A DNA stretch of 64,000 bases from Burkholderiales bacterium RIFCSPLOWO2_02_FULL_57_36. GTDB taxonomy: Bacteria; Pseudomonadota; Gammaproteobacteria; Burkholderiales; Burkholderiaceae_D. The notes under the pieces are model-generated. The model was given only the letters and a program-made list of their open reading frames with translations, had not been told where the DNA came from and ran no database searches. Each line of letters begins with the position of its first letter. The stretch's first letter is position 1. Shown here piece by piece: positions 417-53,783 of this stretch. Position numbers and translations under genes: made by a program. The stretch is from the NCBI GenBank assembly GCA_001770855.1, contig MESE01000016.1, positions 81,532 to 145,531 of the forward strand, in the 5' to 3' direction.

Positions 417-1043
417 ATGCCAAACCCCGCAGACGAAGCCGTCGCACTCTCCGCCCTGCAACACTGGATCTACTGTCCGCGCCAATGCGGGCTGATTCAT
501 CTGGAACAGGCGTTCGAGGAAAACATCCACACGGCGCGCGGGCAGGCTGTGCATCATCTGGTCGATACGCCGGGATATGAAATCAAGTCGGGTGTGCGCG
601 TCGAGCGTGCGCTGCCGGTGTGGAGCGATCGTTACAATCTGATCGGCAAGGCGGATCTGGTTGAGTTCCACCTCGATGGCATGGTGTATCCGGTTGAGTT
701 CAAGCATGGTGCCAAACGGCAGAAACTGCACGACGATATTCAACTCGCCGCGCAGGCGATTTGTCTGGAAGAGATGCTCGGTCGCACCGTGTCAAGCGGG
801 GCCATTTTCCACGCCAGCAGCCATCGGCGGCGAGAAGTTCTCATCACCCCGGCACTAAGGCAGTTGGTGATTGACACCGCCGATGCGATTCGCGCGATGC
901 TATCTTCGGGAAAACTGCCGCCGCCGGTGAACGATGCGCGTTGCGATCAGTGTTCACTGAAAAATATCTGCCAGCCGCAGGCGCTGGCGGAGCGGGGCAA
1001 GCAACGCCAACAACGACGCAGTCTATTCGACCCGGAGGCATAA
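417..1043 (+). CDS. cas4: Cas4, CRISPR-associated RecB-like exonuclease
   Basis: 208 aa, normal for type I-C Cas4. The RecB-type nuclease core is visible as GKAD (Asp80), VEFKHG (Glu94, Lys96) and a downstream QLAAQA helix (Gln109). Cysteines for a 4Fe-4S cluster are Cys20 and the C-terminal trio Cys176, Cys179 and Cys185 (CDQCSLKNIC). In the family Cas4 works with Cas1-Cas2 to trim prespacers and select PAMs during adaptation. The ATG at 417 follows the cas7 stop by 28 bp, and the gene ends 1 bp before the GTG of cas1, so the three are surely co-transcribed. All expected catalytic and cluster residues are present. Confidence 0.95.
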   Translation: MPNPADEAVALSALQHWIYCPRQCGLIHLEQAFEENIHTARGQAVHHLVDTPGYEIKSGVRVERALPVWSDRYNLIGKADLVEFHLDGMVYPVEFKHGAKRQKLHDDIQLAAQAICLEEMLGRTVSSGAIFHASSHRRREVLITPALRQLVIDTADAIRAMLSSGKLPPPVNDARCDQCSLKNICQPQALAERGKQRQQRRSLFDPEA

Positions 1044-2592: not shown

Positions 2593-5007
2593 GTATCGCC
2601 CGACATAATTGTCGGGCGTGGATTGAAACTCAATGTCCCTGTGCGAAGCATCGAGCTTCGAAATAAGTATCGCCCGACATAATTGTCGGGCGTGGATTGA
2701 AACATGCAAATCTCCGGCGGCACCTCCACTCAGATCGCGTATCGCCCGACATAATTGTCGGGCGTGGATTGAAACCCACATCTCGACCTGGTTGGAAAAA
2801 CCGTTGAGCGATTGTATCGCCCGACATAATTGTCGGGCGTGGATTGAAACATTTAGTTATCCTCCGAGGCATAGTTAAGATTGCCGTATCGCCCGACATA
2901 ATTGTCGGGCGTGGATTGAAACTGGTATTGCCGCCGCCGAAAAGCGACTTGTCCTGCGTATCGCCCGACATAATTGTCGGGCGTGGATTGAAACCGGGAT
3001 CAGATCCGGGAGGCGTTGCGCTTCAGTGTATCGCCCGACATAATTGTCGGGCGTGGATTGAAACCTCGTTGCCTGTACCGAGTCCAACGCGCACGGTCAA
3101 GGTATCGCCCGACATAATTGTCGGGCGTGGATTGAAACAACGCGCAGAACAAGTATCAACTGCCGAGCGAGAAGTATCGCCCGACATAATTGTCGGGCGT
3201 GGATTGAAACTATGTAGCAGCGCACCAATACCGAGGGATCAACCGTATCGCCCGACATAATTGTCGGGCGTGGATTGAAACTTTAGTAATGACTTGCTGG
3301 CAGAGATTGAGCCACTGTATCGCCCGACATAATTGTCGGGCGTGGATTGAAACAAACGTGCGGGCAAAGAACGGCCAGCCGAACGAAGGTATCGCCCGAC
3401 ATAATTGTCGGGCGTGGATTGAAACAAATTGGAGGCAACAATGAGCGCAGAAATACTAAAGTATCGCCCGACATAATTGTCGGGCGTGGATTGAAACTTC
3501 TGTAGAACGCCTGCTCCCGTCGCGCTTTGTCGTATCGCCCGACATAATTGTCGGGCGTGGATTGAAACTCTCTCATCCATAGTCCAGCGTTACTTCTTCC
3601 GGCGGTATCGCCCGACATAATTGTCGGGCGTGGATTGAAACACCTTGTACTCAGGGACAGATGTTTCCGTGACTGGGTATCGCCCGACATAATTGTCGGG
3701 CGTGGATTGAAACATCACGCTTCCTTTCCTGATTGCTGCGCTCCTGTAGGTATCGCCCGACATAATTGTCGGGCGTGGATTGAAACCGGCCAGCGCAACC
3801 GCGCGCACCGCTGGCGTGAACGTATCGCCCGACATAATTGTCGGGCGTGGATTGAAACCGCAATGGTCTGGCCTTGCTGAAACGGGAGAAAAAAGGTATC
3901 GCCCGACATAATTGTCGGGCGTGGATTGAAACCCTCTGACGGTCGAGCAAGGATTCAACGGGCAGAGTATCGCCCGACATAATTGTCGGGCGTGGATTGA
4001 AACATTAGCTGCTTATTGGTCAATGCGCGATGCAGGCGAGGTATCGCCCGACATAATTGTCGGGCGTGGATTGAAACCCTAAAGTGCGCAGTGGACGCCG
4101 AGGACGGAAGGGGTATCGCCCGACATAATTGTCGGGCGTGGATTGAAACCTGAAGGATGGGCTCGGACAGTCGGCAAGACTGTTGTATCGCCCGACATAA
4201 TTGTCGGGCGTGGATTGAAACTTCTCTGCCCATACCGTGAATGCCGATGGTCTGAGTATCGCCCGACATAATTGTCGGGCGTGGATTGAAACCGAAAACG
4301 CGCAACCGGAAAGAAGCCATCCAATCGTATCGCCCGACATAATTGTCGGGCGTGGATTGAAACGAGAATATCGAAGCCCCAGAACGTCCCGGTTGCGGGT
4401 ATCGCCCGACATAATTGTCGGGCGTGGATTGAAACTGGAAAAAATTGCGCAATCCATGGCGGGCAGCATGTATCGCCCGACATAATTGTCGGGCGTGGAT
4501 TGAAACGCGCTGGAACGGTATCAACAAACGATGTCGCTCTGTATCGCCCGACATAATTGTCGGGCGTGGATTGAAACGAAGAAATCTATGTTTATGGCAA
4601 GGCGCTTGGCACGTATCGCCCGACATAATTGTCGGGCGTGGATTGAAACCAAGCAGGGAAGGTCGGCGCGGAGATCGCTGGAACGTATCGCCCGACATAA
4701 TTGTCGGGCGTGGATTGAAACAACGAAGTCGGCAGGAATCGCAGCCACACCGGAAGTATCGCCCGACATAATTGTCGGGCGTGGATTGAAACCTGCAAGG
4801 TTTGCTCAACCTCGGCCAAGGGAACAGTATCGCCCGACATAATTGTCGGGCGTGGATTGAAACGTGTGATCGGGCAGACAGCCGCGTTTTTCGGCGGGGT
4901 ATCGCCCGACATAATTGTCGGGCGTGGATTGAAACGTCGGCGAAGACAGCAACGTCTCGCGCAGCGTCGTGTATCGCCCGACATAATCGTCGGGCGCTGG
5001 CTTTCTG
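2593..5007 (+). CRISPR. CRISPR array, 34 repeats and 33 spacers, type I-C associated
   Basis: Repeat unit is 37 nt: it begins GTATCGCCCGACATAATTGT and ends GGGCGTGGATTGAAAC (the two strings join with one C between them). Repeats start at 2593, 2667, 2739, 2814, 2886, 2958, 3028, 3102, 3174, 3245, 3317, 3389, 3461, 3532, 3605, 3677, 3750, 3822, 3896, 3967, 4041, 4113, 4185, 4256, 4327, 4399, 4470, 4541, 4613, 4685, 4756, 4827, 4899 and 4971. Spacers are 33-38 nt, most 35. The last repeat (4971) is degenerate: a T-to-C change in the loop side, and its 3' third is lost after GTCGGGCG. Each repeat holds a 9-bp inverted repeat CGCCCGACA / TGTCGGGCG around TAAT; cleavage at the stem base would leave the 11-nt handle TGGATTGAAAC typical of I-C. 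Orientation plus, supported by cas genes, leader and distal decay. Confidence 0.99.
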
Positions 5008-28647: not shown

Positions 28648-28689
28648 CGGGCCGTCCGGCCGGGCTGCGCATTAATGTTAGATACTCAA

Positions 28690-28735
28690 GGCGAGGACGA
28701 CCTCGCCACACCACCACAAAGCAGGGACGACCCTG
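28690..28735 (+). ncRNA. Guanidine-II riboswitch (mini-ykkC)
   Basis: Two adjacent hairpins with identical ACGA loops: GGCGAGG-ACGA-CCTCGCC (28690-28707) and CAGGG-ACGA-CCCTG (28722-28735), joined by a 14-nt CA-rich linker. Twin stem-loops with ACGR tetraloops are the defining structure of the guanidine-II class, in which the loops dock and bind guanidinium. It ends 21 nt before the ATG of a SugE/Gdx exporter, the classic target. Expression should be turned on by guanidine, probably at translation. Confidence 0.92.
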
Positions 28736-45445: not shown

Positions 45446-45653
45446 TAAGTCGGTGGCACTGCAGCCACCGGCGCGATGCTCGACAAGATCGGCGTGCCGG
45501 CCATCAATACCCTCATGCTCAGTCAGCAATCGGCGGCGCAATGGCAAGAGTCGAAAGTCGGGCTGGACATCATCGAACGCACCTGGCAACTGGCCGGCGC
45601 GGAATTTGCCTGCCTGATCCAGCCCACCGTGGTCACCAGCGGCGAACGCGTGA
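45446..45653 (+). pseudogene. cobN fragment, partial duplicate of the downstream CobN-like gene
   Basis: About 208 bp align with bases near 50166-50376 of the large CobN-like gene at high identity without gaps: GCCACCGGCGCGATGCTCGA is shared at both places, and the reading frame gives MLDKIGVPAIN, then SQQSAAQWQESKVGLD and so on. Differences are scattered substitutions (NTLML against NAITL; FACLIQP against FAGLIQP). The likeness stops abruptly after GCGAACGCGTGA. Without the rest of the gene it is a relic, either of a lost second copy or of a partial duplication. Confidence 0.8.
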
Positions 45654-45851
45654 TAGCTTCCTTTCCTTCGCCGAAAAAGGTCTTCTATAGGTGAATCGGG
45701 TAACGCTTTATCCCAATCCGCTGGTAGTGACACATTTTTTTGATCCTGAGGGGACTGCCCTTGCCAGTATGCTGGAACAATCCGCGCTAGGGAGCGGGAG
45801 CGGTAGTTGATTTAGCAAAACAATCAAGGTAGACTCCGCCCCTTACGTGTA
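45654..45851. other. Unassigned spacer region before the second riboswitch
   Basis: No recognisable gene. A 39-codon frame (GTG 45691 to TGA 45810; NRVTLYPNPLVVTHFFDPEG...) looks orderly but matches nothing I know, and it lacks a ribosome binding site. The promoter for the second riboswitch transcript should lie here, perhaps near GTTGATTTAGCAAAACAATC (about 45807-45826). Confidence 0.3.
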
Positions 45852-46037
45852 TGGTGCCCTCCTGCTTATCTGTCGGAGGGTGAAACGGGAAGCCGGTGAC
45901 GTGGGAGATTGCATCTCTTGCCAGTCCGGCGCAGCCCCCGCTGCTGTAAGCCTGACGAATTTGTCCAAATGCCACTGTGCCACTGCATGGGAAGGTAAGG
46001 ACAGAGGAGGATGAAGGCGAGCCAGAATACCGGCCAT
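45852..46037 (+). ncRNA. Cobalamin riboswitch upstream of the second TonB receptor
   Basis: Textbook cobalamin riboswitch blocks in order: ATGGTGCCCTCC, AACGGGAAGCCGGTG, CCAGTCCGGCGCAGCCCCCG with CTGCTGTAAGC, ATGCCACTGTGCC with CACTGCATGGGAAGGTAAGG, and the closing GCCAGAATACCGGCC. It ends about 230 nt before the receptor ATG. It should repress the receptor-ExbB-DUF2149-CobN-like-ferredoxin unit when adenosylcobalamin is plentiful, the same logic as at btuB. Confidence 0.96.
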
Positions 46038-46269
46038 GCGCGTTGATTGATGGTGCAAAACCCGGGGAGTGGTTTTGTCCGTTTGACTTTAGCACCCATT
46101 GACTTGTTTCCAATTGATTTCGCTCGTCGCGGGCACTGCCTGTGCTCGCGACGCACATGTGCGCCGTCGATGGATGAGATCGGACAATGCGGTTCTGCAG
46201 ATACGCACTCAAACGGCGGTTTCCTTTTCGCGTGATGCCCGTGTCGCCGAACTATTATCAGGGAAAATA

Positions 46270-48363
46270 ATGCGCATTCTTCATTTGCAATCTTCGCTGC
46301 TGGTCACGCTTCTGGCCGGCGTCAGCCTGGTCAATGCGGCCGGCATCCCCACGCTGCAGGAAGTTGTCGTCACCGCCGATCGCAACAGCCTGATCGGGGT
46401 GGCGGACTCCGCCACCGAAGGCACGGTCACCGCCAAACAGCTGGCCAATCGTCCCTTGCTGCGCGCGGCGGAAGTCATGGAGATGGTGCCGGGCATGATC
46501 GTCACCCAGCACTCCGGCGACGGCAAAGCCAATCAATATTTTCTGCGCGGATTCAATCTTGATCATGGCAGCGACTTTGCGACCACGCTGATGGGCATGC
46601 CAGTCAACATAGTGAGCCATGCGCACGGTCAGGGTTACATGGATCTCAATTTCCTGATACCCGAACTGATTTCCACGCTTAAATATCGCAAAGGCGTCTA
46701 TGCCGCCGAGGATGGCGATTTTGCCACCACCGGTTCTGCGCACATCGGTTACCAGCGCCAATTGAAAGATGCGTTTGCCGATGTGACGCTGGGACCGCAT
46801 CAATACCGCAGTCTCCTGGCCGCCGGCAGCAGGGAAATCAATGGCTTCCAGTTGTTGGGCGGCGTTGAGCTGGCCGGCAACAACGGCCCTTGGGACCAGC
46901 CTGAAAATCTGCGCAAGTTCAATGGCGTAGTGCGCCTGTCCAAAGGCAGCGTCACCAACGGCTTCGCACTCACCGCAATGGCTTATCAGTCCGACTGGAT
47001 CGCCACTGAGCATGTGCCCGAGCGCGCAATCATCAGCGGAGAAATTGGCCGCTACGGCGCGCTTTCCGCCAATGATGGCGGCAAGACGCATCGCTACAGT
47101 TTGTCCGGCGAATGGGCCAGGACGGACGCGGCCGGGTCCGACAAGCTTAGCGCCTATGTTGTCGATTACGGCCTCAATCTTTTTTCCGCACCGTCCGGCT
47201 TCATCAACGGGTCGCAGGGAGATCAGCACGAACAGGCCGATCAGCGCACCACCTGGGGCGGTCAGGCAAGCCGCTCGTGGTTCCTGGGGCCTGACCTGAA
47301 GGACACCGAGCTGACGGTCGGCCTGCAGTTGCGCCATGACAGCATCGGCAACGTAGGTCTGTATGAGACAGTCAACCGTGTACGCACCAATACGGTCCGC
47401 CAAGACACGATCACCGAAACCGCCGCTGGCCTGTTTGTCGAAGCACGCAGCCAATGGAACCGCTGGTTGCGCAGCACCGTGGGTGTGCGCCGTGATCAAA
47501 TCAGCGGAAACACTACGGCGACCGGCGGTCAGTTCAACATGAATAATGGCGGCAGTGTCAATGCTGGCCAGACCAGCCCCAAGCTCAGCATTGTCCTGGG
47601 TCCGTTTGGCGAGCCGGCCAACACTGAGTTGTACGGCAACTGGGGTTACGGCTTTCACAGCAACGATGTGCGCGGCGCAACGGCGGTGACGAATCCGCTT
47701 GACGGCGCGGCGGCGGAAAAGCTGGCGATTTTTTCCAAGGCAAAAGGCGCGGAAATCGGCGTGCGTCTCAAGCCGCTGCCCGGCTGGAGCAGCAGCCTGT
47801 CGTTGTGGCGCATGGAGTTGGGATCGGAGCTGGTGTTCGTAGGCGACCAAGGTGTCACCGAGGCACGCGGCGCTTCCGAGCGGTACGGCGTTGAATGGTC
47901 GAACTACATCACACCCAACGACTGGCTGATCATCGACGGCGATATCGCCTGGTCAAAAGCGCGATTCAAAAATCCGGTGGCTGGCGATGGCGGCACCTAT
48001 ATACCGAATGCGATTCCGCTGACGGCGTCGCTCGGCATTACCGCCGATCATGGCGGGCAATGGTTCGGCGGCTTGCGCCTGCGTTATCTGGGTGCCTACG
48101 CGCTGGAAGAAACCGGCAAGGAAAAATCCTCGCCGTTCTGGACTGCCAACCTGAAACTGGGTTATCGCATTCAACCGAAGGTCCAACTCAGTCTCGATGT
48201 GCTCAATCTGTTCGACCGCAAGGCGAATGATGTCGAGTACTGGGGTGGCGCTTGCACCCGCGGCGAGCAGGCCGGCGGCACCTGCAACGGAGGGATCGAC
48301 GGGCGCCTGATCCATCCACTGGAGCCACGGACTTTTCGCGTCAGTGTAAGAGCCTCGTTCTGA
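46270..48363 (+). CDS. TonB-dependent receptor under B12 control
   Basis: 697 aa from the ATG at 46270, with AGGGAAAATA upstream; earlier in-frame starts run through the riboswitch tail. Signal peptide about 1-23 (LLVTLLAGVSLVNAA). TonB-box-like LQEVVVTADRN, plug with EVMEMVPGMIVTQHSGDGKANQYFLRGFNLDHGSDF, barrel to a C-terminal Phe (VSVRASF). It is not a close match to BtuB at 33045. The His-rich plug loop NIVSHAHGQGYMDLN is notable. Ligand unknown: a corrinoid, cobalt chelate or another metal complex is likely from the riboswitch and the downstream chelatase. Confidence 0.88.
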   Translation: MRILHLQSSLLVTLLAGVSLVNAAGIPTLQEVVVTADRNSLIGVADSATEGTVTAKQLANRPLLRAAEVMEMVPGMIVTQHSGDGKANQYFLRGFNLDHGSDFATTLMGMPVNIVSHAHGQGYMDLNFLIPELISTLKYRKGVYAAEDGDFATTGSAHIGYQRQLKDAFADVTLGPHQYRSLLAAGSREINGFQLLGGVELAGNNGPWDQPENLRKFNGVVRLSKGSVTNGFALTAMAYQSDWIATEHVPERAIISGEIGRYGALSANDGGKTHRYSLSGEWARTDAAGSDKLSAYVVDYGLNLFSAPSGFINGSQGDQHEQADQRTTWGGQASRSWFLGPDLKDTELTVGLQLRHDSIGNVGLYETVNRVRTNTVRQDTITETAAGLFVEARSQWNRWLRSTVGVRRDQISGNTTATGGQFNMNNGGSVNAGQTSPKLSIVLGPFGEPANTELYGNWGYGFHSNDVRGATAVTNPLDGAAAEKLAIFSKAKGAEIGVRLKPLPGWSSSLSLWRMELGSELVFVGDQGVTEARGASERYGVEWSNYITPNDWLIIDGDIAWSKARFKNPVAGDGGTYIPNAIPLTASLGITADHGGQWFGGLRLRYLGAYALEETGKEKSSPFWTANLKLGYRIQPKVQLSLDVLNLFDRKANDVEYWGGACTRGEQAGGTCNGGIDGRLIHPLEPRTFRVSVRASF

Positions 48364-48428
48364 GCAAACCTGCAGCTCTATTACATCAATTCACAAGTAT
48401 CAACCTACAAATTATTGAAGGAATGCTG

Positions 48429-49055
48429 ATGCCATATTTTTCTTCCGATTCGACGGTGCATCTCGTCGAGACGCTGCTGTATTCCATCTCGACCGCTCTC
48501 TACTTGCCGGTACTGCTCGCGATTGTCGGCCTGGTGCTGCATCTGCTAATCTGCTTCGGCGCGTTCATCGGCGAGTGGCGCGAGCGGCGGCGCGGCATCC
48601 GGATTCTAGTCGATACGGCGCAAGCACAGATGACCGCCTCACTTGCTGCGACGGATGGCCAGCCGGGACTCGACGCGCGGCTGGAGCGTCTGGTGCAGAA
48701 AGCCGATGCCGACGGCATGCGCCGTCTCGACTCGGTCCGTTTCGTGGTGCGGGTCGGCCCGGCACTTGGGTTGATGGGCACGCTGATACCGATGGGTATT
48801 TCGCTGGCCGGCCTGGCGCAAGGCAACCTGCCGAAAATGGCCGAGAGCATGACGACCGCATTCACCGCCACTGTGGTTGGCCTCGCCTGCAGTGTGACCG
48901 CCTATGTGTTGACCTTGGCGCGCGAACACTGGCTGCGCAGCGACGTCTCCGACATTGCCTATGCGGCGGAAATGCTGCTGGCGCAACATGCGACCAATTC
49001 GACTCCGGCTCATGCAGTGCACGCCGCACCGCATATCGTCCGCACGGGGGCCTGA
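48429..49055 (+). CDS. MotA/TolQ/ExbB proton channel family protein
   Basis: 208 aa from the ATG at 48429, six bases after GAAGGA; an ATG at 48423 is possible. N-terminal TM (LYLPVLLAIVGLVLHLLICFG), then the ExbB/TolQ double-TM core VRVGPALGLMGTLIPMGISL and MAESMTTAFTATVVGLACSVTAYVL. Shorter than ExbB but with the conserved GLMGTL and AFTATVVGL motifs. ExbB-type channels turn proton flow into work on the outer membrane or periplasm. Followed at once by the DUF2149 protein, which takes the place of ExbD. Confidence 0.88.
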   Translation: MPYFSSDSTVHLVETLLYSISTALYLPVLLAIVGLVLHLLICFGAFIGEWRERRRGIRILVDTAQAQMTASLAATDGQPGLDARLERLVQKADADGMRRLDSVRFVVRVGPALGLMGTLIPMGISLAGLAQGNLPKMAESMTTAFTATVVGLACSVTAYVLTLAREHWLRSDVSDIAYAAEMLLAQHATNSTPAHAVHAAPHIVRTGA

Positions 49056-49056
49056 G

Positions 49057-49395
49057 ATGCGCTACCTGAATCGCCATCGCTACAGCCGCATCAACAATCA
49101 TGACGGCGACGACCCGTTGGCTGGCGTCGCCAACCTGTTCGACGCCAGCATCGTGTTCATCGTCGCGATGATGCTGGCCCTGTTTTCAGCATGGAACATG
49201 CTGGATCTGCTGGATCCGAATTCGGAAGTCACGATCGCCAAAAAAGGCGCCGACGGCAAGGTCGAAATCCTCACCAAAAAAGGCGCGGAAATCAAGATCA
49301 GCCGCGTCAGCGACAAACCGCTGTCGGGCGCCGGCACGCGCCTCGGCACTGCCTATCAGCTGCCCGATGGAAAGGTCGTCTATGTACCGGAATAA
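49057..49395 (+). CDS. DUF2149 protein, probable ExbD-like partner
   Basis: 112 aa from the ATG at 49057, directly after the channel-protein stop. Short cytoplasmic part, one TM (LFDASIVFIVAMMLALFSAWNML) with an Asp at its start (FDAS), then a small periplasmic domain SEVTIAKKGADGKVEILTKKGAEIKISR ending GTAYQLPDGKVVYVPE. This layout is like ExbD/TolR. DUF2149 genes accompany MotA/TolQ/ExbB genes and CobN-like genes in several phyla. The 3' end overlaps the CobN-like gene by 14 bp. Confidence 0.85.
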   Translation: MRYLNRHRYSRINNHDGDDPLAGVANLFDASIVFIVAMMLALFSAWNMLDLLDPNSEVTIAKKGADGKVEILTKKGAEIKISRVSDKPLSGAGTRLGTAYQLPDGKVVYVPE

Positions 49396-52300
49396 GCTGT
49401 ACGTATTGACACTATTATTTTTTTGCCTGCTCGGCAACGCGCATACTGCACCACGCACATTTGCAGTGTTGCTGGGCGATGTCGAATCGCGCCCTGCAGT
49501 GCTGGCAGTGCGCGCATTGCAACCGACGCTGCAATCGCTCGACGTGACGGTGCGCATCATCCCCGCCAGCGGCATGACGCAGGCCGATCGCGCCGCACTG
49601 AGCAGTGCCGATGCGGTGCTGCTGAATGTACAGGGCAGGCAACTGGTGCAGCCCATCACAGAGGAATTGCAGATATTACAGCGCGCCGGTCGCCCGGTGT
49701 ACGCAGTCGGCGGCGCACTGGACGACGGCTTGCGCGCGCTCGGCATGCGCGAGGATAAAACCATGCAGGATTATCATCGCGCCGGCGGCGTTGAAAACAT
49801 GAGCAACCTGCTGCGTCATTTGCTGCGCATCGGGTTCGGCGCAGATATCGCCGTCGCCCCGCTGCAGCCGATGCCCGAAGTCGGCCTGTACGACGTCGGC
49901 GCCAATCGCACCGCAGCCAGCTTCGACCAATACGTGCGCGGCTATCCAAAGCATCGTCCCGGTGCGCCGTGGATCGGCGTGATGTTCTATCGCGCCAGCC
50001 TGGTTGCCGGGCAGACGCTGCCGTTGGCCGCCGTCGTGGCGCGGCTGGAGCAGGCTGGCTACAACGTGCTGCCCGCATTCGGCTATCCATATGAAGTGCC
50101 GCTGCGCTATTTTGTCGATGACGCAGGCAAGTCGCGCATCGACCTGATCGTCGCTCTCGGCATGAAAGTCGGCGGCACCGCAGCCACCGGCGCGATGCTC
50201 GACAAGATCGGCGTGCCGGCCATCAATGCCATCACGCTCAGCCAGCAATCGGCGGCACAATGGCAAGAATCGAAAGTCGGGCTGGACATTATCGAACGCA
50301 CCTGGCAACTGGCCGGCGCGGAATTTGCCGGCCTGATCCAGCCGACCGTGGTCGCCAGCCGCGAACGCGTGACCGATGCCCAGACAGGCTTGGCCTATGT
50401 CGAAGAGCAACCGATCACCGAACGCATAGAGCGCCTGCAGGCGCGCATCGCCGCCTGGCTCATCCTGCGCCGCAACGCCAATGCCGACAAGCGTGTCGTC
50501 ATGTTGTACTACAACTACCCGCACGGTTCCGAAACCATCGGTGCCGCCTACCTCAACGTATTGCCGGAAAGCCTGTGGCATATCGCGCAGCGCCTCAAGC
50601 AGGAAGGCTACGCAACCCAGCTACCGGCAGACAAGCGCACACTGCAAAACGACATTCAGCGCTGGGGCAATTATCCCGGCAAAGGCGCGCAGGATTATCG
50701 TGCCGGCCTGGCGCAACTGGCCACAGCCGGCGAAGCGCTGCTGGTGCCGCTGGCCGACTACCGCCGCTGGTATGGGCAGTTGCCCGCCGCATTGCGCCGT
50801 TCGGTTGAAAAAGCCTGGGGCCTGCCTGAGCAGGCGCCGGTGTTGTGGCGCGACGCCGCTGGGCAGGCGCAATTCGTATTCCCGGCGCGACGCTACGGCA
50901 ACCTCATCATGGCACCGCAACCGGGCCGCGCATGGGAGCAAAACCTGGAAAAGCTGCACAACGACGTCACCCTGCCGCCCAGCCATGAATACATCGCGTT
51001 CTACCTGTGGATGCAACACGGCTACAAGGCCAACGCAGTGCTGCACGTCGGCACCCACGGCACGCACGAGTGGCTGACCGGCAAGGAAGCAGGGCTATCG
51101 GAAGCAGACTCGACCGAAGCGCTGATCGGCGCAGTGCCGAACATCTATCCCTACGTGATGGACGATGTCGGCGAAGGCCTGCAAGCCAAGCGGCGCGGCA
51201 TGGCCACCATCATCGACCACATGACGCCGCCGTTCGACGTGGCCGGGCTCAATCCCGACTTGCGTGAACTGGGCGCGCTGCTCAACGACCACCGTGTCGC
51301 CGAACAGAAAAGCCCGCTACTGGCGCGCAGCCATCTGGCCGCGCTGAACCGGCTGGCACTGAAGAGCGGCGTTCTCAAGGACATGAAACGCAAGACGCTC
51401 AGCAGCGAAGCCGACCTCGAAGCGCTGGAAGAATATCTCGACGATACCGCCGCCAAGCTCGCGCCGTTCGGCCTGCACACATTCGGCGTCGCACCCGATG
51501 CGACAATGCGCAATGCCACCGCGCGCGCCGTGGTCAGCCTCGACAAGAACCTGACGCCGACCGAACAGGTAAGCCGCATCCAGCAACTGGAGCAAGACAT
51601 CCTGCGCAGCGCCGACCTGGAGCTGGATCGCCTGATGCAGGCGCTGGCAGGACGCTACATTCCATCCGGCCCCAGCGCCGATCTGGTGCGCAATCCCGAT
51701 GCGCTGCCGACCGGCCGCAACTTCTTTGGCCTCGATCCATCGCGCATTCCGAGCCGCGCCACCTACGAGCAGGGCTCGAAACTGGCGCAGCAACTGGTCG
51801 AGGATTATCGCGCGCGCCACGGCAGCTATCCGGACAAGCTCAGCATCAACCTGTGGGGCGTGGAAACCTCGCGTCACGAAGGCATCATGGAAGCGCAGAT
51901 CATGGCGCTGATGGGCGTACGGCCCAAGTGGGACGAGCGCGGCCGCGTGACCGGGGTCGAACCGATTACCCGCAGCAAGCTTGGCCGGCCACGGGTCGAT
52001 GTCACGATGATTTCATCCGGCCTGTTCCGCGACCTGTTCGGCAACCTGCTCAAGCTGCTGGACCAGGCTGCGCAACTGGCGCAGCAACAGGACGACAGCG
52101 ACAACCCGCTGCAAGCCCACACGCGCAAGATGACCGCCGACCTGCAGCGGCGCGGCCTGTCGGCGGAAGAAGCGCAACGCATGGCCGGCGTGCGCATCTT
52201 CGGCCTGCCCTCCGGCGCGTACGGCACCAACATCGAAAAGCTGATCCCGCTGTCCAACGCATGGCAGAACGAAAAGCGGATCGCCGACGTCTTCATCAAC

Positions 52301-53353
52301 CGCATGAGCCATCCTTTCGGCCAAGGCTACTGGGGCGACGAGCAGAGCGACAGCCAGGCCGCCGTCGCGCTGCGCCATGACGTATTCAAGCAAGCGCTGT
52401 CGGGCAGCAAGATCGCGCTGCACAGCCGCTCCAGCAACCTGTTTGCGACGCTCGACAACGATGACTTCTTCCAGTATCTGGGCGGCACCGCGCTGGCGAT
52501 TCGCAGCGTGGACGGCAAGACGCCGGAAGTAACGGTCAGCGACCTCTCCAACCCACGCAATCCGCATCATGCGTCGCTGGAAAAATACATGGGACAAGAG
52601 CTGCAGACCCGCTACCTCAACCCGCGCTGGGCAGACGGCATGCTGCGCGAAGGCTACGCCGGCACGCGCTTCATCAACCGCGTGGTCGATTACTTGTGGG
52701 CCTGGCAAGTCACCGTGCCGGAAGTAGTGGACGCAAGCAAATGGCAGCGCATGTACGACACCTACGTCGCGGACCGCCACGGCCTGCACGTGCGTGACCG
52801 GTTTGCCGAAAGCGGCAACATGCGCGCCTTCCAGGCCATCACCGACCGCATGCTGAGCGCCATCGAGCGCGGCTACTGGAAGCCGACCGACGCCGTGCGC
52901 GCGAGACTGCAGCAAGAGAACGCGCGCGCCATCGCCGATGCAGGCGTGGCATGCAGCGTCGAGTCCTGCAGTCGCGCCACACTGAAGATCGCGCCTCGTC
53001 TTGCGACGAACGCCGCTGCACAAACTCAGGCGAAAGGCAGCGCACCGGGCAATGCTGTAATGCCTGTCGATGCACTGGCGGCAACCGCCGCAGCTGCATC
53101 GGCAGTGCAGACAAAACCTGCCACTGTCGTGGCAAAATCCGTTGCGCTTGCAAAACAAACCAGCAGCAAAGTCGCGCCGTCCGCACCTGCAAACAAAGCG
53201 CCGGAAGGGCAGGTCTCGGGTTTTGAAATGCAGACGCTGACCAACTTGACCCCCGACCAGAAAACCATTGGCACGCTGTTGTTGCTGGCATTGGCGATTG
53301 GATTGATGGGCATCGGCTATTGGCGACGCAGTAGTGCCAAGGCCGTGCGTTGA
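49382..53353 (+). CDS. CobN-like chelatase subunit with signal peptide and C-terminal membrane anchor
   Basis: 1323 aa from the ATG at 49382. CobN/magnesium chelatase H family: VMLYYNYPHGSETIGAAYLNVLPES, VLHVGTHGTHEWLTGKEAGLSEAD, INLWGVETSRHEGIMEAQIMALMGVRPKWDERGRV, and RMSHPFGQGYWGDEQSD. Unlike cytoplasmic CobN it begins with a signal peptide (KLYVLTLLFFCLLGNAHTAP) and ends, after a long Ala/Lys/Gln-rich linker (about residues 1200-1280), in a TM (TLLLLALAIGLMGIGYW) with a basic tail. It should therefore be periplasmic and anchored in the inner membrane. No CobS/CobT ATPase is encoded nearby. It resembles the membrane-bound HmuS haem dechelatase type. It may insert or remove cobalt in a corrin, or serve transport; unproven. 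Confidence 0.88.
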   Translation: MYRNKLYVLTLLFFCLLGNAHTAPRTFAVLLGDVESRPAVLAVRALQPTLQSLDVTVRIIPASGMTQADRAALSSADAVLLNVQGRQLVQPITEELQILQRAGRPVYAVGGALDDGLRALGMREDKTMQDYHRAGGVENMSNLLRHLLRIGFGADIAVAPLQPMPEVGLYDVGANRTAASFDQYVRGYPKHRPGAPWIGVMFYRASLVAGQTLPLAAVVARLEQAGYNVLPAFGYPYEVPLRYFVDDAGKSRIDLIVALGMKVGGTAATGAMLDKIGVPAINAITLSQQSAAQWQESKVGLDIIERTWQLAGAEFAGLIQPTVVASRERVTDAQTGLAYVEEQPITERIERLQARIAAWLILRRNANADKRVVMLYYNYPHGSETIGAAYLNVLPESLWHIAQRLKQEGYATQLPADKRTLQNDIQRWGNYPGKGAQDYRAGLAQLATAGEALLVPLADYRRWYGQLPAALRRSVEKAWGLPEQAPVLWRDAAGQAQFVFPARRYGNLIMAPQPGRAWEQNLEKLHNDVTLPPSHEYIAFYLWMQHGYKANAVLHVGTHGTHEWLTGKEAGLSEADSTEALIGAVPNIYPYVMDDVGEGLQAKRRGMATIIDHMTPPFDVAGLNPDLRELGALLNDHRVAEQKSPLLARSHLAALNRLALKSGVLKDMKRKTLSSEADLEALEEYLDDTAAKLAPFGLHTFGVAPDATMRNATARAVVSLDKNLTPTEQVSRIQQLEQDILRSADLELDRLMQALAGRYIPSGPSADLVRNPDALPTGRNFFGLDPSRIPSRATYEQGSKLAQQLVEDYRARHGSYPDKLSINLWGVETSRHEGIMEAQIMALMGVRPKWDERGRVTGVEPITRSKLGRPRVDVTMISSGLFRDLFGNLLKLLDQAAQLAQQQDDSDNPLQAHTRKMTADLQRRGLSAEEAQRMAGVRIFGLPSGAYGTNIEKLIPLSNAWQNEKRIADVFINRMSHPFGQGYWGDEQSDSQAAVALRHDVFKQALSGSKIALHSRSSNLFATLDNDDFFQYLGGTALAIRSVDGKTPEVTVSDLSNPRNPHHASLEKYMGQELQTRYLNPRWADGMLREGYAGTRFINRVVDYLWAWQVTVPEVVDASKWQRMYDTYVADRHGLHVRDRFAESGNMRAFQAITDRMLSAIERGYWKPTDAVRARLQQENARAIADAGVACSVESCSRATLKIAPRLATNAAAQTQAKGSAPGNAVMPVDALAATAAAASAVQTKPATVVAKSVALAKQTSSKVAPSAPANKAPEGQVSGFEMQTLTNLTPDQKTIGTLLLLALAIGLMGIGYWRRSSAKAVR

Positions 53354-53423
53354 GCAGCATGATTCATGCAGAGCATGTTGATCATGTGGATAAACTTATT
53401 CAGCCAGACGAGGAGGAAAAACT

Positions 53424-53783
53424 ATGAGAACCCATGTCAAGCACGTGTTGATTTGTACCGGCCCTCGCTGCGATGTCGACGGCGTACCGGCGCACGCATT
53501 GTTTCATCGATTAGGTGAAATGATCGATGCGCGTCCGGATATAAAAGTGAAGCGCACCCGAACCCAGTGTTTCATGGTGTGCAAGGAGGCGCCGATTCTG
53601 GTCGTCTATCCTGACGGCGTGTGGTATCACCGCGTTGACGAGAAAGCGCTTGAGCGGATCGTGGTCGAACATCTGGAGGGCGGCCGGGAAGTCACGGAAT
53701 ATGTTTTCCATCGCTTATACGAAGGCGACGTAGGCCCGCCGGAAGATCCAAACGAGCCGCATCCATGCGACCCCGGCTGCTGA
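53424..53783 (+). CDS. 2Fe-2S thioredoxin-like ferredoxin of B12 clusters
   Basis: 119 aa with a strong ribosome binding site (AGGAGGAAAAACT before the ATG). Thioredoxin-like 2Fe-2S fold: HVLICTGPRCDVDG (Cys11, Cys16) and TQCFMVCKEAPILVVYPDGVWYHRV (Cys49, Cys53), plus a C-terminal CDPGC (Cys115, Cys119). COG3411-type ferredoxins are often found in cobalamin loci, where they may deliver electrons for cobalt reduction. 70 bp after the CobN-like gene, and the last gene of the unit. The protein lacks a signal peptide, so it is cytoplasmic, unlike the CobN-like partner. Confidence 0.85.
   Translation: MRTHVKHVLICTGPRCDVDGVPAHALFHRLGEMIDARPDIKVKRTRTQCFMVCKEAPILVVYPDGVWYHRVDEKALERIVVEHLEGGREVTEYVFHRLYEGDVGPPEDPNEPHPCDPGC

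What the first reader, a model, noticed from the sequence alone, without database searches (positions are those of the whole stretch)
45852..53783. B12-riboswitch operon with a secreted, membrane-anchored CobN-like chelatase, ExbB/DUF2149 motor and its own TonB receptor
The sequence shows a cobalamin riboswitch, a TonB receptor, an ExbB/TolQ-like channel, a DUF2149 protein with an ExbD-like layout, and a 1323-aa CobN homologue that has a signal peptide and a C-terminal TM, then a 2Fe-2S protein. Ordinary CobN is cytosolic and needs CobS/CobT ATPases, absent here. Known parallel: Bacteroidetes hmuYRSTUV, in which the CobN-like HmuS removes iron from haem and is flanked by MotA/TolQ/ExbB and DUF2149 genes. 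Inference: this may be a corrinoid- or cobalt-dedicated version, in which the ExbB/DUF2149 pair uses proton motive force to drive the periplasmic chelatase (dechelation of cobalt from corrinoids, insertion into metal-free corrin, or handover from the receptor). The receptor is not BtuB, which is present separately.
Basis: partly seen in the sequence, partly recalled or inferred. Interest (0 to 1): 0.88.

Follow-up and report, generated by a model that had tools for sequence, protein, structure and literature searches.

The report
Proton-driven cobalt chelatase of cell envelope
A B12-riboswitch-led operon beside this bacterium's vitamin B12 genes encodes an outer-membrane receptor, an ExbB-family proton-channel protein with a DUF2149 partner, and a relative of the cobalt-inserting enzyme CobN that is predicted to sit in the cell envelope, where it would likely pull cobalt out of imported corrinoid-like complexes using the proton gradient instead of ATP.

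Summary
Window 45835-53783 carries a cobalamin riboswitch (121.5 bits), TonB receptor, ExbB-like channel, DUF2149 protein, 1323-aa CobN-type chelatase with predicted signal peptide and C-terminal TM, and a likely 2Fe-2S protein. The gene set is known from Bacteroidota hmu (haem) and Pseudomonas PA1922-1925 (zinc). Riboswitch-led hmu-like operons are in print for Bacteroidetes (PMC10100974); CobN-like 'BtuS' proteins date from 2003. New here: the window's chelatase belongs to a clade whose named members span at least five phyla. A same-strand riboswitch lies upstream in 43 of the 80 loci held (16 of them near relatives). Some relatives' operons add BtuF-CbiZ fusions, DUF4430 (transcobalamin-type) proteins or cobalt permeases. 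The active site is CobN-like and lacks HmuS's haem ligands. DUF2149 keeps an invariant TM aspartate. Best reading: a B12-repressed, proton-driven envelope chelatase for cobalt/corrinoids, likely de-chelating. Direction is unproven: the window's genome shows no corrin-ring markers and no CbiZ, which leaves cobalt insertion into scavenged corrins open.

The parts
45835..46052 (+). Cobalamin (B12) riboswitch aptamer
   Evidence: RF00174 121.5 bits, model 1-189; refound by own model R1 at 154.4 bits, though R1 was built with it
46270..48363 (+). TonB-dependent outer-membrane receptor, 697 aa, not BtuB
   Evidence: PF00593 and PF07715; 27.9 bits to TIGR01779 against cut-off 599.7; 73% identical to a riboswitch-led receptor before a different CobN clade in L036, 38-44% to receptors beside CobN in Oxalobacteraceae, Methylomonas and Brocadia loci; no PDB relative at E 1e-3
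48423..49055 (+). ExbB/TolQ/MotA-like proton-channel subunit, 210 aa
   Evidence: PF01618 40.4 bits; P113, G116, T120, P123, A146, F147, G153 in 68 of 68 chelatase-linked ExbBs aligned, T150 in 65 of 68
49057..49395 (+). DUF2149 protein, 112 aa, one predicted TM helix, ExbD-like layout
   Evidence: PF09919 102.5 bits; P20, N26, D29, G97, G105 invariant in 52 of 52; AF2 helix 20-52, low overall confidence, pLDDT 67.7, pTM 0.32
49382..53353 (+). CobN-type class I chelatase, 1323 aa, predicted signal peptide and C-terminal TM anchor
53424..53783 (+). Likely thioredoxin-like 2Fe-2S protein, 119 aa, last same-strand gene before an opposite-strand ORF
   Evidence: PF01257 21.7 bits, under cut-off 24.8; a homologue lies near the cytosolic-type CobN of G088 (L056, 228 bits) and in none of L062-L141
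45447..45653 (+). Orphan copy of a 207-base piece of cobN, just upstream of the riboswitch
   Evidence: 93.7% identical to 50166-50372; seen as a PF02514 fragment

Best explanation
A B12 riboswitch heads one run of genes for a TonB receptor, an ExbB-family channel, a DUF2149 protein and a CobN-type class I chelatase, which together would likely form an envelope machine that takes cobalt out of an imported corrinoid-like complex with energy from the proton gradient. Shown by sequence: the gene set and order, the riboswitch and its recurrence in relatives named from at least five phyla, the CobN-type (not HmuS-type) active-site residues, no CobS/CobT match, the linkage of ExbB and DUF2149 to the chelatase, and corrinoid and cobalt neighbours in some relatives. 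Inferred steps: (1) low B12 would switch the operon on; (2) the receptor brings a cobalt complex into the periplasm; (3) the chelatase, anchored by its C-terminal helix and facing the periplasm, binds it in the class I cavity around H559/D1028/Q1031; (4) ExbB plus DUF2149, through the invariant DUF2149 TM aspartate, turn proton flow into the conformational work that CobST/ChlID do with ATP; (5) cobalt(II) is released and taken up by a permease (HupE, CbiMNQO or DUF2162 in relatives; a HupE-family gene elsewhere in this genome). The cargo in the window itself may be a corrinoid or another cobalt chelate; de-chelation is preferred over insertion but not proven.
For: Riboswitch on the same strand within 10 kb upstream in 43 of 80 relatives, 41 of 62 with at least 6 kb upstream held; 16 of the 43 are Oxalobacteraceae near relatives, the other 27 lie in betaproteobacterial, Desulfobacterota-type, planctomycete, Bacteroidota, Nitrospirota- and Verrucomicrobia-named branches. 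Chelatase-type ExbB within 3 kb in 68 of 79 and DUF2149 in 69 of 79 (within 100 bases in 57 of 79); in the 47 loci with 7 kb held on both sides, 45 have that ExbB, 44 DUF2149, 37 a receptor within 7 kb. Eight of 80 loci hold an ExbD beside a canonical ExbB, i.e. a second motor, and 12 a TonB hit. Corrinoid partners: CbiZ in 11 of 80 plus L037, six fused to a BtuF-type binding domain; DUF4430, the C-terminal domain of transcobalamins (PMC4350170), in 5 of 80. Cobalt partners: CbiM and/or CbiQ in 4, HupE in 2, CbiK in 6 of 80. Riboswitch-led systems sit in genomes with the corrin-ring gene CbiC in 23 of 28, others in 6 of 22. Active site: H559, D1028, Q1031 as in cytosolic CobN. Envelope: signal-like N-terminus plus C-terminal TM in 73 of 85 clade rows (near copies and cut rows included), 0 of 3 cytosolic CobN. 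The receptor family plus riboswitch is joined to a second, distant CobN clade in L036. Precedent: HmuS de-chelates haem without ATP, NADH- and membrane-dependent (PMC12583661).
Against: The own genome has no CbiC or CbiJ, so freed cobalt has no known use in making B12 there; 22 of the 23 DUF2149 genomes lack CbiC (one of them only 67% complete). No CbiZ in any of 12 genomes tested, 10 Oxalobacteraceae (own included) and 2 riboswitch-led Bacteroidota, so these corrinoid partners come from other lineages. The riboswitch/CbiC link is not significant on independent tree pairs (median p 0.125). 37 of 80 relatives show no upstream riboswitch; some contigs are short. Two full loci (L111, L121) have receptor and chelatase but no ExbB or DUF2149, and 7 of the 13 receptor-less loci are near relatives of the window. 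Overall shape is nearer HmuS by TM-score (0.85 against 0.76 for CobN). No known chemistry removes cobalt from an intact corrin (recalled). DUF2149-ExbD homology is weak: hhalign probability 24%, E 8e-4. Topology is predicted only. In B. fragilis a btuS1 btuS2 double mutant still released PPIX from haem (PMC6460266).
Confidence: 0.4

Rival explanations
1. The machine inserts cobalt into scavenged metal-free or incomplete corrins in the periplasm, a late-insertion step moved outside the cell and driven by the proton gradient.
For: Active-site residues match inserting CobN rather than HmuS. The own genome lacks CbiC/CbiJ but holds CbiA- and CobQ-like genes beside the operon, the late half of the pathway (recalled). 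Six of six genomes of the distant CobN clade (type C) lack CbiC, and four of its six loci show a CbiA-family gene near cobN (L049, L051, L052, L053).
Against: 23 of 28 riboswitch-led relatives tested carry CbiC, so metal-free corrin scavenging would be odd there. Adjacent cobalt permeases in a few loci fit release better. Free metal-less corrins are rare in nature (recalled).
Confidence: 0.22
2. The ExbB/DUF2149 pair merely energises the TonB receptor, and the chelatase works unpowered, as the hmu literature draws it.
For: PMC12583661 assigns HmuU/HmuV to receptor energising. TonB genes lie in 12 of 80 loci. Recombinant HmuS converts haem to PPIX (PMC12583661). Two full loci keep receptor and chelatase without the pair (L111, L121).
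Against: 13 of 66 loci have pair and chelatase but no receptor within 7 kb, though 7 of the 13 are near relatives of the window. Eight loci encode a separate ExbD with its own ExbB. DUF2149 rings in the single-membraned archaeon Methanosarcina acetivorans (control), which has no TonB receptors (recalled); its gene neighbourhood was not seen.
Confidence: 0.28
3. The cargo is another metal or chelate: nickel, zinc or an unknown cobaltophore, with B12 control a by-product of cobalt or nickel economy.
For: The window-type receptor sits beside HupE, a Ni/Co permease family (recalled), in Methylomonas loci that lack a riboswitch. PA1922-1925 is zinc-regulated. Zur-like sites with 2 and 3 mismatches lie upstream in L045/L046.
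Against: The riboswitch recurs across distant branches of the clade, and corrinoid proteins recur in the operons of some.
Confidence: 0.12
4. It is an ordinary haem-iron system of the HmuS type with a misleading riboswitch.
For: Same gene set as hmuRSUV and the best TM-score is to HmuS (0.85).
Against: HmuS M79, H254, H1209 and E1212 are Q84, M261, D1028 and Q1031 here, and a long HmuS insertion is absent. Gene order differs.
Confidence: 0.04

Closest known systems
Bacteroidota hmuYRSTUV with HmuS haem de-chelatase (PMC12583661, PDB 9d26/9p4s)
   Different: B12 riboswitch, no HmuY or HmuT in the window, other gene order, no haem ligands M79/H254, no H1209/E1212, no long insertion
Riboswitch-led hmu-like operons of Bacteroidetes (PMC10100974) and the BtuS proteins of Rodionov 2003
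   Same: Cobalamin riboswitch before an hmu-like CobN operon; the authors suggest cobalamin metabolism
   Different: In the passages I saw, a few sentences on Bacteroidetes; here a clade named from several phyla with CbiZ, DUF4430 and cobalt-permease partners in some. Rodionov 2003 itself is not held
Pseudomonas aeruginosa PA1921-PA1925 (PMC4542158, PMC9431628)
   Same: Receptor, CobN-like, proton-channel protein, DUF2149 in one operon
   Different: Zur-regulated, zinc stress; gene order receptor-CobN-channel-DUF2149 as in several of my type B loci, not the window's order
Cytosolic cobaltochelatase CobNST
   Different: Predicted export and anchor; no CobT or CobS match in the genome
ExbB-ExbD / TolQ-TolR / MotAB motors
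   Same: PF01618 subunit plus a one-TM protein with an invariant TM Asp
   Different: DUF2149 gives no Pfam ExbD match; profile match weak

Membership tests
HmuS haem de-chelatase | Site-1 haem ligands Met79 and His254 | tested here: not met
   Q84 and M261 at the aligned places
HmuS haem de-chelatase | LSLDHxxEFMGG motif with His1209 and Glu1212 | tested here: not met
   TLDNDDFFQYLGG, D1028 and Q1031
HmuS haem de-chelatase | Superfamily His538 in HFG(T/A)HG | tested here: met
   HVGTHG, H559
HmuS haem de-chelatase | Methionine-rich insertion | tested here: not met
   HmuS 687-917 corresponds to window 707-730; that this stretch holds the insertion is my inference
CobNST cobaltochelatase | CobN fold and active-site residues | tested here: met
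CobNST cobaltochelatase | CobS and CobT partners in the genome | tested here: not met
   No match in G000; genome 97.5% complete; other AAA+ partners not tested
CobNST cobaltochelatase | Cytosolic, no signal peptide or anchor | tested here: not met
   Hydropathy prediction only
BtuS (CobN-like, envelope, Rodionov 2003) | CobN relative, predicted exported and membrane-anchored, apart from CobN of synthesis | tested here: met
   the definition is second-hand from PMC6460266
BtuS (CobN-like, envelope, Rodionov 2003) | Groups with BtuS1/BtuS2/HmuS reference sequences in a tree | not tested
   No such reference was in the trees
ExbB/TolQ/MotA channel | PF01618 with conserved TM2/TM3 motifs | tested here: met
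ExbD/TolR | Pfam ExbD match | tested here: not met
   Window protein matches only PF09919 at E 0.1
ExbD/TolR | Homology and TM Asp shared with ExbD | tested here: inconclusive
   Asp29 invariant 52 of 52; an ExbD (L055) hits PF09919 at 1.9e-5, below cut-off; hhalign 24%
BtuB | TIGR01779 over cut-off | tested here: not met
   27.9 bits against 599.7; the window's BtuB itself scores 426, also under it
Proton-driven chelatase motor | Physical complex and proton-gradient dependence | not testable with these tools
   Needs biochemistry

The most novel reading that the evidence does not exclude
A class I metal chelatase whose ATP-burning partner ring has been replaced by an ExbB/ExbD-type proton motor, working in the periplasm as a corrin de-metallase: the first enzyme to take cobalt out of an intact corrin, kept under B12 control across several phyla.
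Probability: 0.27. Interest if true: 0.92.

Novelty: new variant of a known kind. Interest (0 to 1): 0.64.

Why it matters
If right, it gives cobalt and corrinoids what HmuS gave haem: an envelope route to the metal. [quoted passage not shown] It would link ExbB-type motors to enzyme catalysis instead of outer-membrane transport, and name a partner set (DUF2149, DUF2162, BtuF-CbiZ, DUF4430) that can be tested in ordinary laboratory strains. It also warns that 'CobN' in a genome does not mean aerobic B12 synthesis.

Tried and rejected
HmuS membership was rejected on four residues and the insertion. BtuB identity of the receptor was rejected. No good Zur box was seen near the window operon (best match 4 mismatches, inside cobN); the consensus was recalled, I looked at 29 sequences with no shuffled control, and only L045/L046 gave near matches upstream of a receptor. 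The riboswitch of L035 leads nrdD-like genes, not the CobN operon (gene names recalled). DUF4430 proteins found no PDB relative by sequence or profile, so the transcobalamin link rests on Pfam and PMC4350170. The DUF2149 model was too weak for a fold search. Archaeal neighbourhoods could not be fetched; only the control hit in Methanosarcina acetivorans and PMC10846266 passages (two BtuS copies in M. barkeri) bear on them. L044, a CobN relative without the catalytic His, was left out of the query alignment A2. Type names A, B and C are mine.

Rows dropped: four DUF2149 matches under the cut-off (G055, G078, G097, G105); only G055 was looked at and is ExbD. CbiC was tested in 50 of those 80. 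L094 has no full chelatase and is out of the 79. The tree left out 12 of 111 rows as near copies or fragments; that left out 11. Tree method is FastTree with long-branch warnings. Gene calls in loci are mechanical ORFs; of the partner families, one or a few members each were checked in Pfam, the rest by profiles of my own.
Full report
WHAT IS THERE. Riboswitch RF00174 at 45835-46052 is followed on the same strand by a TonB receptor, an ExbB-like protein, a DUF2149 protein, a 1323-aa CobN-type protein and a likely 2Fe-2S protein. DUF2149 and cobN overlap by 14 bases. The window is one stretch of a 5.4-Mb, 151-contig genome that is 97.5% complete. Upstream lies a B12 gene cluster; its gene names are my reading, except BtuB and the BtuF- and CobQ/CbiA-like hits. 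By its nearest relatives (Duganella, Noviherbaspirillum, Massilia) the host is probably an Oxalobacteraceae bacterium (inference).

LOCATION. A signal-like N-terminus plus a C-terminal hydrophobic helix are found in 73 of 85 rows of the window's clade (near copies and cut rows included), 13 of 14 of a second clade (type B), 4 of 6 of a third (type C), and 0 of 3 cytosolic-type CobN rows. The window's own N-terminal stretch is hydrophobic but short (17-residue mean 1.59). This is a hydropathy count, not a topology experiment.

DISTRIBUTION. DUF2149 rings in 17 of 398 genomes drawn from the phylum and 11 of 116 of the family, 7 of them over the cut-off: sporadic. A same-strand riboswitch lies within 10 kb upstream of the chelatase in 43 of 80, 41 of 62 where at least 6 kb upstream is held. 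Sixteen of the 43 are Oxalobacteraceae near relatives. I made the riboswitch model from 14 sequences, two from the window and none from these 80 loci. In the tree riboswitch-led rows occur in planctomycete, Desulfobacterota-type, Bacteroidota, Nitrospirota/Verrucomicrobia-named and betaproteobacterial branches, while several derived branches, such as Methylomonas, Dyadobacter and part of the Verrucomicrobia, lack it (FastTree). Many of these names are those of metagenome bins.

DOES THE MOTOR TRAVEL WITH THE CHELATASE? Chelatase-type ExbB lies within 3 kb in 68 of 79 loci with a full chelatase and DUF2149 in 69 of 79. In the 47 loci with 7 kb held on both sides, 45 have ExbB, 44 DUF2149 and 37 a receptor within 7 kb. 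Of 66 loci with 3.5 kb upstream, 13 have DUF2149 but no receptor within 7 kb, 7 of these near relatives of the window; 7 have a receptor but no DUF2149 within 3 kb, of which L111 and L121 are full loci without any ExbB or DUF2149, while L123, L132, L135 and L141 are held for under 2 kb past cobN and in L128 it lies further off. Eight loci also carry an ExbD with a canonical ExbB, and 12 a TonB hit. Across 52 DUF2149 proteins the TM aspartate D29 is invariant. The profile iterated on these pulled in true ExbDs and an ExbD hits the DUF2149 model weakly, yet profile comparison is unconvincing (probability 24%). So 'ExbD-like' is a layout and one residue, not proven homology.

CORRINOID AND COBALT PARTNERS IN RELATIVES. 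CbiZ, which cuts the nucleotide loop off corrinoids (recalled function), is in 11 of 80 loci plus L037, and in six (L037, L106, L114, L126, L133, L136) it is fused to a BtuF-type periplasmic binding domain; the N-termini of some look like signal peptides. Five Brocadia-type loci have a small secreted-looking DUF4430 protein just before the chelatase; transcobalamins carry this domain at their C-terminus (PMC4350170 passages). CbiM and/or CbiQ occur in L079, L091, L131, L141; HupE in L080, L084; CbiK in 6 of 80; DUF2162 'predicted transporter' in 16 of 80, directly before ExbB in 15 and in one reading frame with it in L131. Genomes with riboswitch-led systems carry the corrin-ring gene CbiC in 23 of 28, others in 6 of 22 (Fisher p 1.4e-4), but independent tree pairs give only a median p of 0.125.

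AGAINST. The own genome has no CbiC, CbiJ, CbiZ, CobS or CobT match. None of 12 genomes tested for CbiZ has it, 10 of them Oxalobacteraceae; of those 10, 4 have CbiC and 3 CbiJ. It has one HupE-family gene elsewhere (all 10 genomes have such a gene). So the link to corrinoids is borrowed from other lineages, and what the window's host would do with free cobalt is open. This keeps cobalt insertion into scavenged corrins alive as a rival.

A NATURAL SWAP. L036, in the same family, has a receptor 73% identical to the window's behind a riboswitch, but its chelatase belongs to the distant type C clade. One receptor family joined to two distant chelatases supports a functional pair. The same receptor family is 38-44% identical in Duganella-type, Methylomonas (beside HupE) and Brocadia loci. 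Other operons of the clade use receptors nearer to BtuB, for instance 24-36% in the Brocadia-type loci.

PRIOR WORK. In the held library five papers mention DUF2149. PMC10100974 (passages) already reports cobalamin riboswitches before hmu-like operons in Bacteroidetes and suggests cobalamin metabolism. PMC6460266 (passages) credits Rodionov 2003 with the BtuS family; that paper is not held. PMC4542158 and PMC9431628 (passages) describe the zinc-linked PA1921-1925 genes. [quoted passage not shown] In the listings and the passages I opened I saw no report of a cobalt or corrin de-chelatase with this motor; the library covers only open-licence papers.

VERDICT. A real, conserved, B12-riboswitch-linked branch of the envelope CobN-type chelatases. 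Cobalt/corrinoid role likely; proton drive plausible; direction open.

Noticed in passing
window 2593-4935: CRISPR array of RF01322-type repeats, 33 repeat matches listed.
   Followed up: no
window 28689-28735: Guanidine-II (mini-ykkC) riboswitch, 46 bits.
   Followed up: no
window 45447-45653: Partial duplicate of cobN (207 bases, 93.7%) directly before the riboswitch, a scar of a second copy or rearrangement.
   Followed up: partly
L045, L046: CobN-like proteins of the same phylum, other class, with HmuS-like D-H-x-x-E in the active site and a Zur-like palindrome (2 and 3 mismatches to a recalled consensus) upstream of the receptor.
   Followed up: partly
L134:1-3060, L139:5998-9993: Second CobN-like copies in the same loci with the first motif His replaced by Ser (SLGTHG), possibly a changed or inactive subunit.
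   Followed up: no
L044:10219-14169: CobN-like protein beside DUF2149 that has lost the catalytic His motif.
   Followed up: no
L036, L049-L053: A third clade (type C, about 1430-1570 aa) with ExbB-type and short DUF2149 partners, often in or near B12 salvage genes or behind a riboswitch, in genomes without CbiC.
   Followed up: partly
L117, L119, L120: A roughly 201-aa membrane-like protein (L117's has no Pfam match) lies between riboswitch and ExbB in Bacteroidota loci, where other loci have DUF2162.
   Followed up: no
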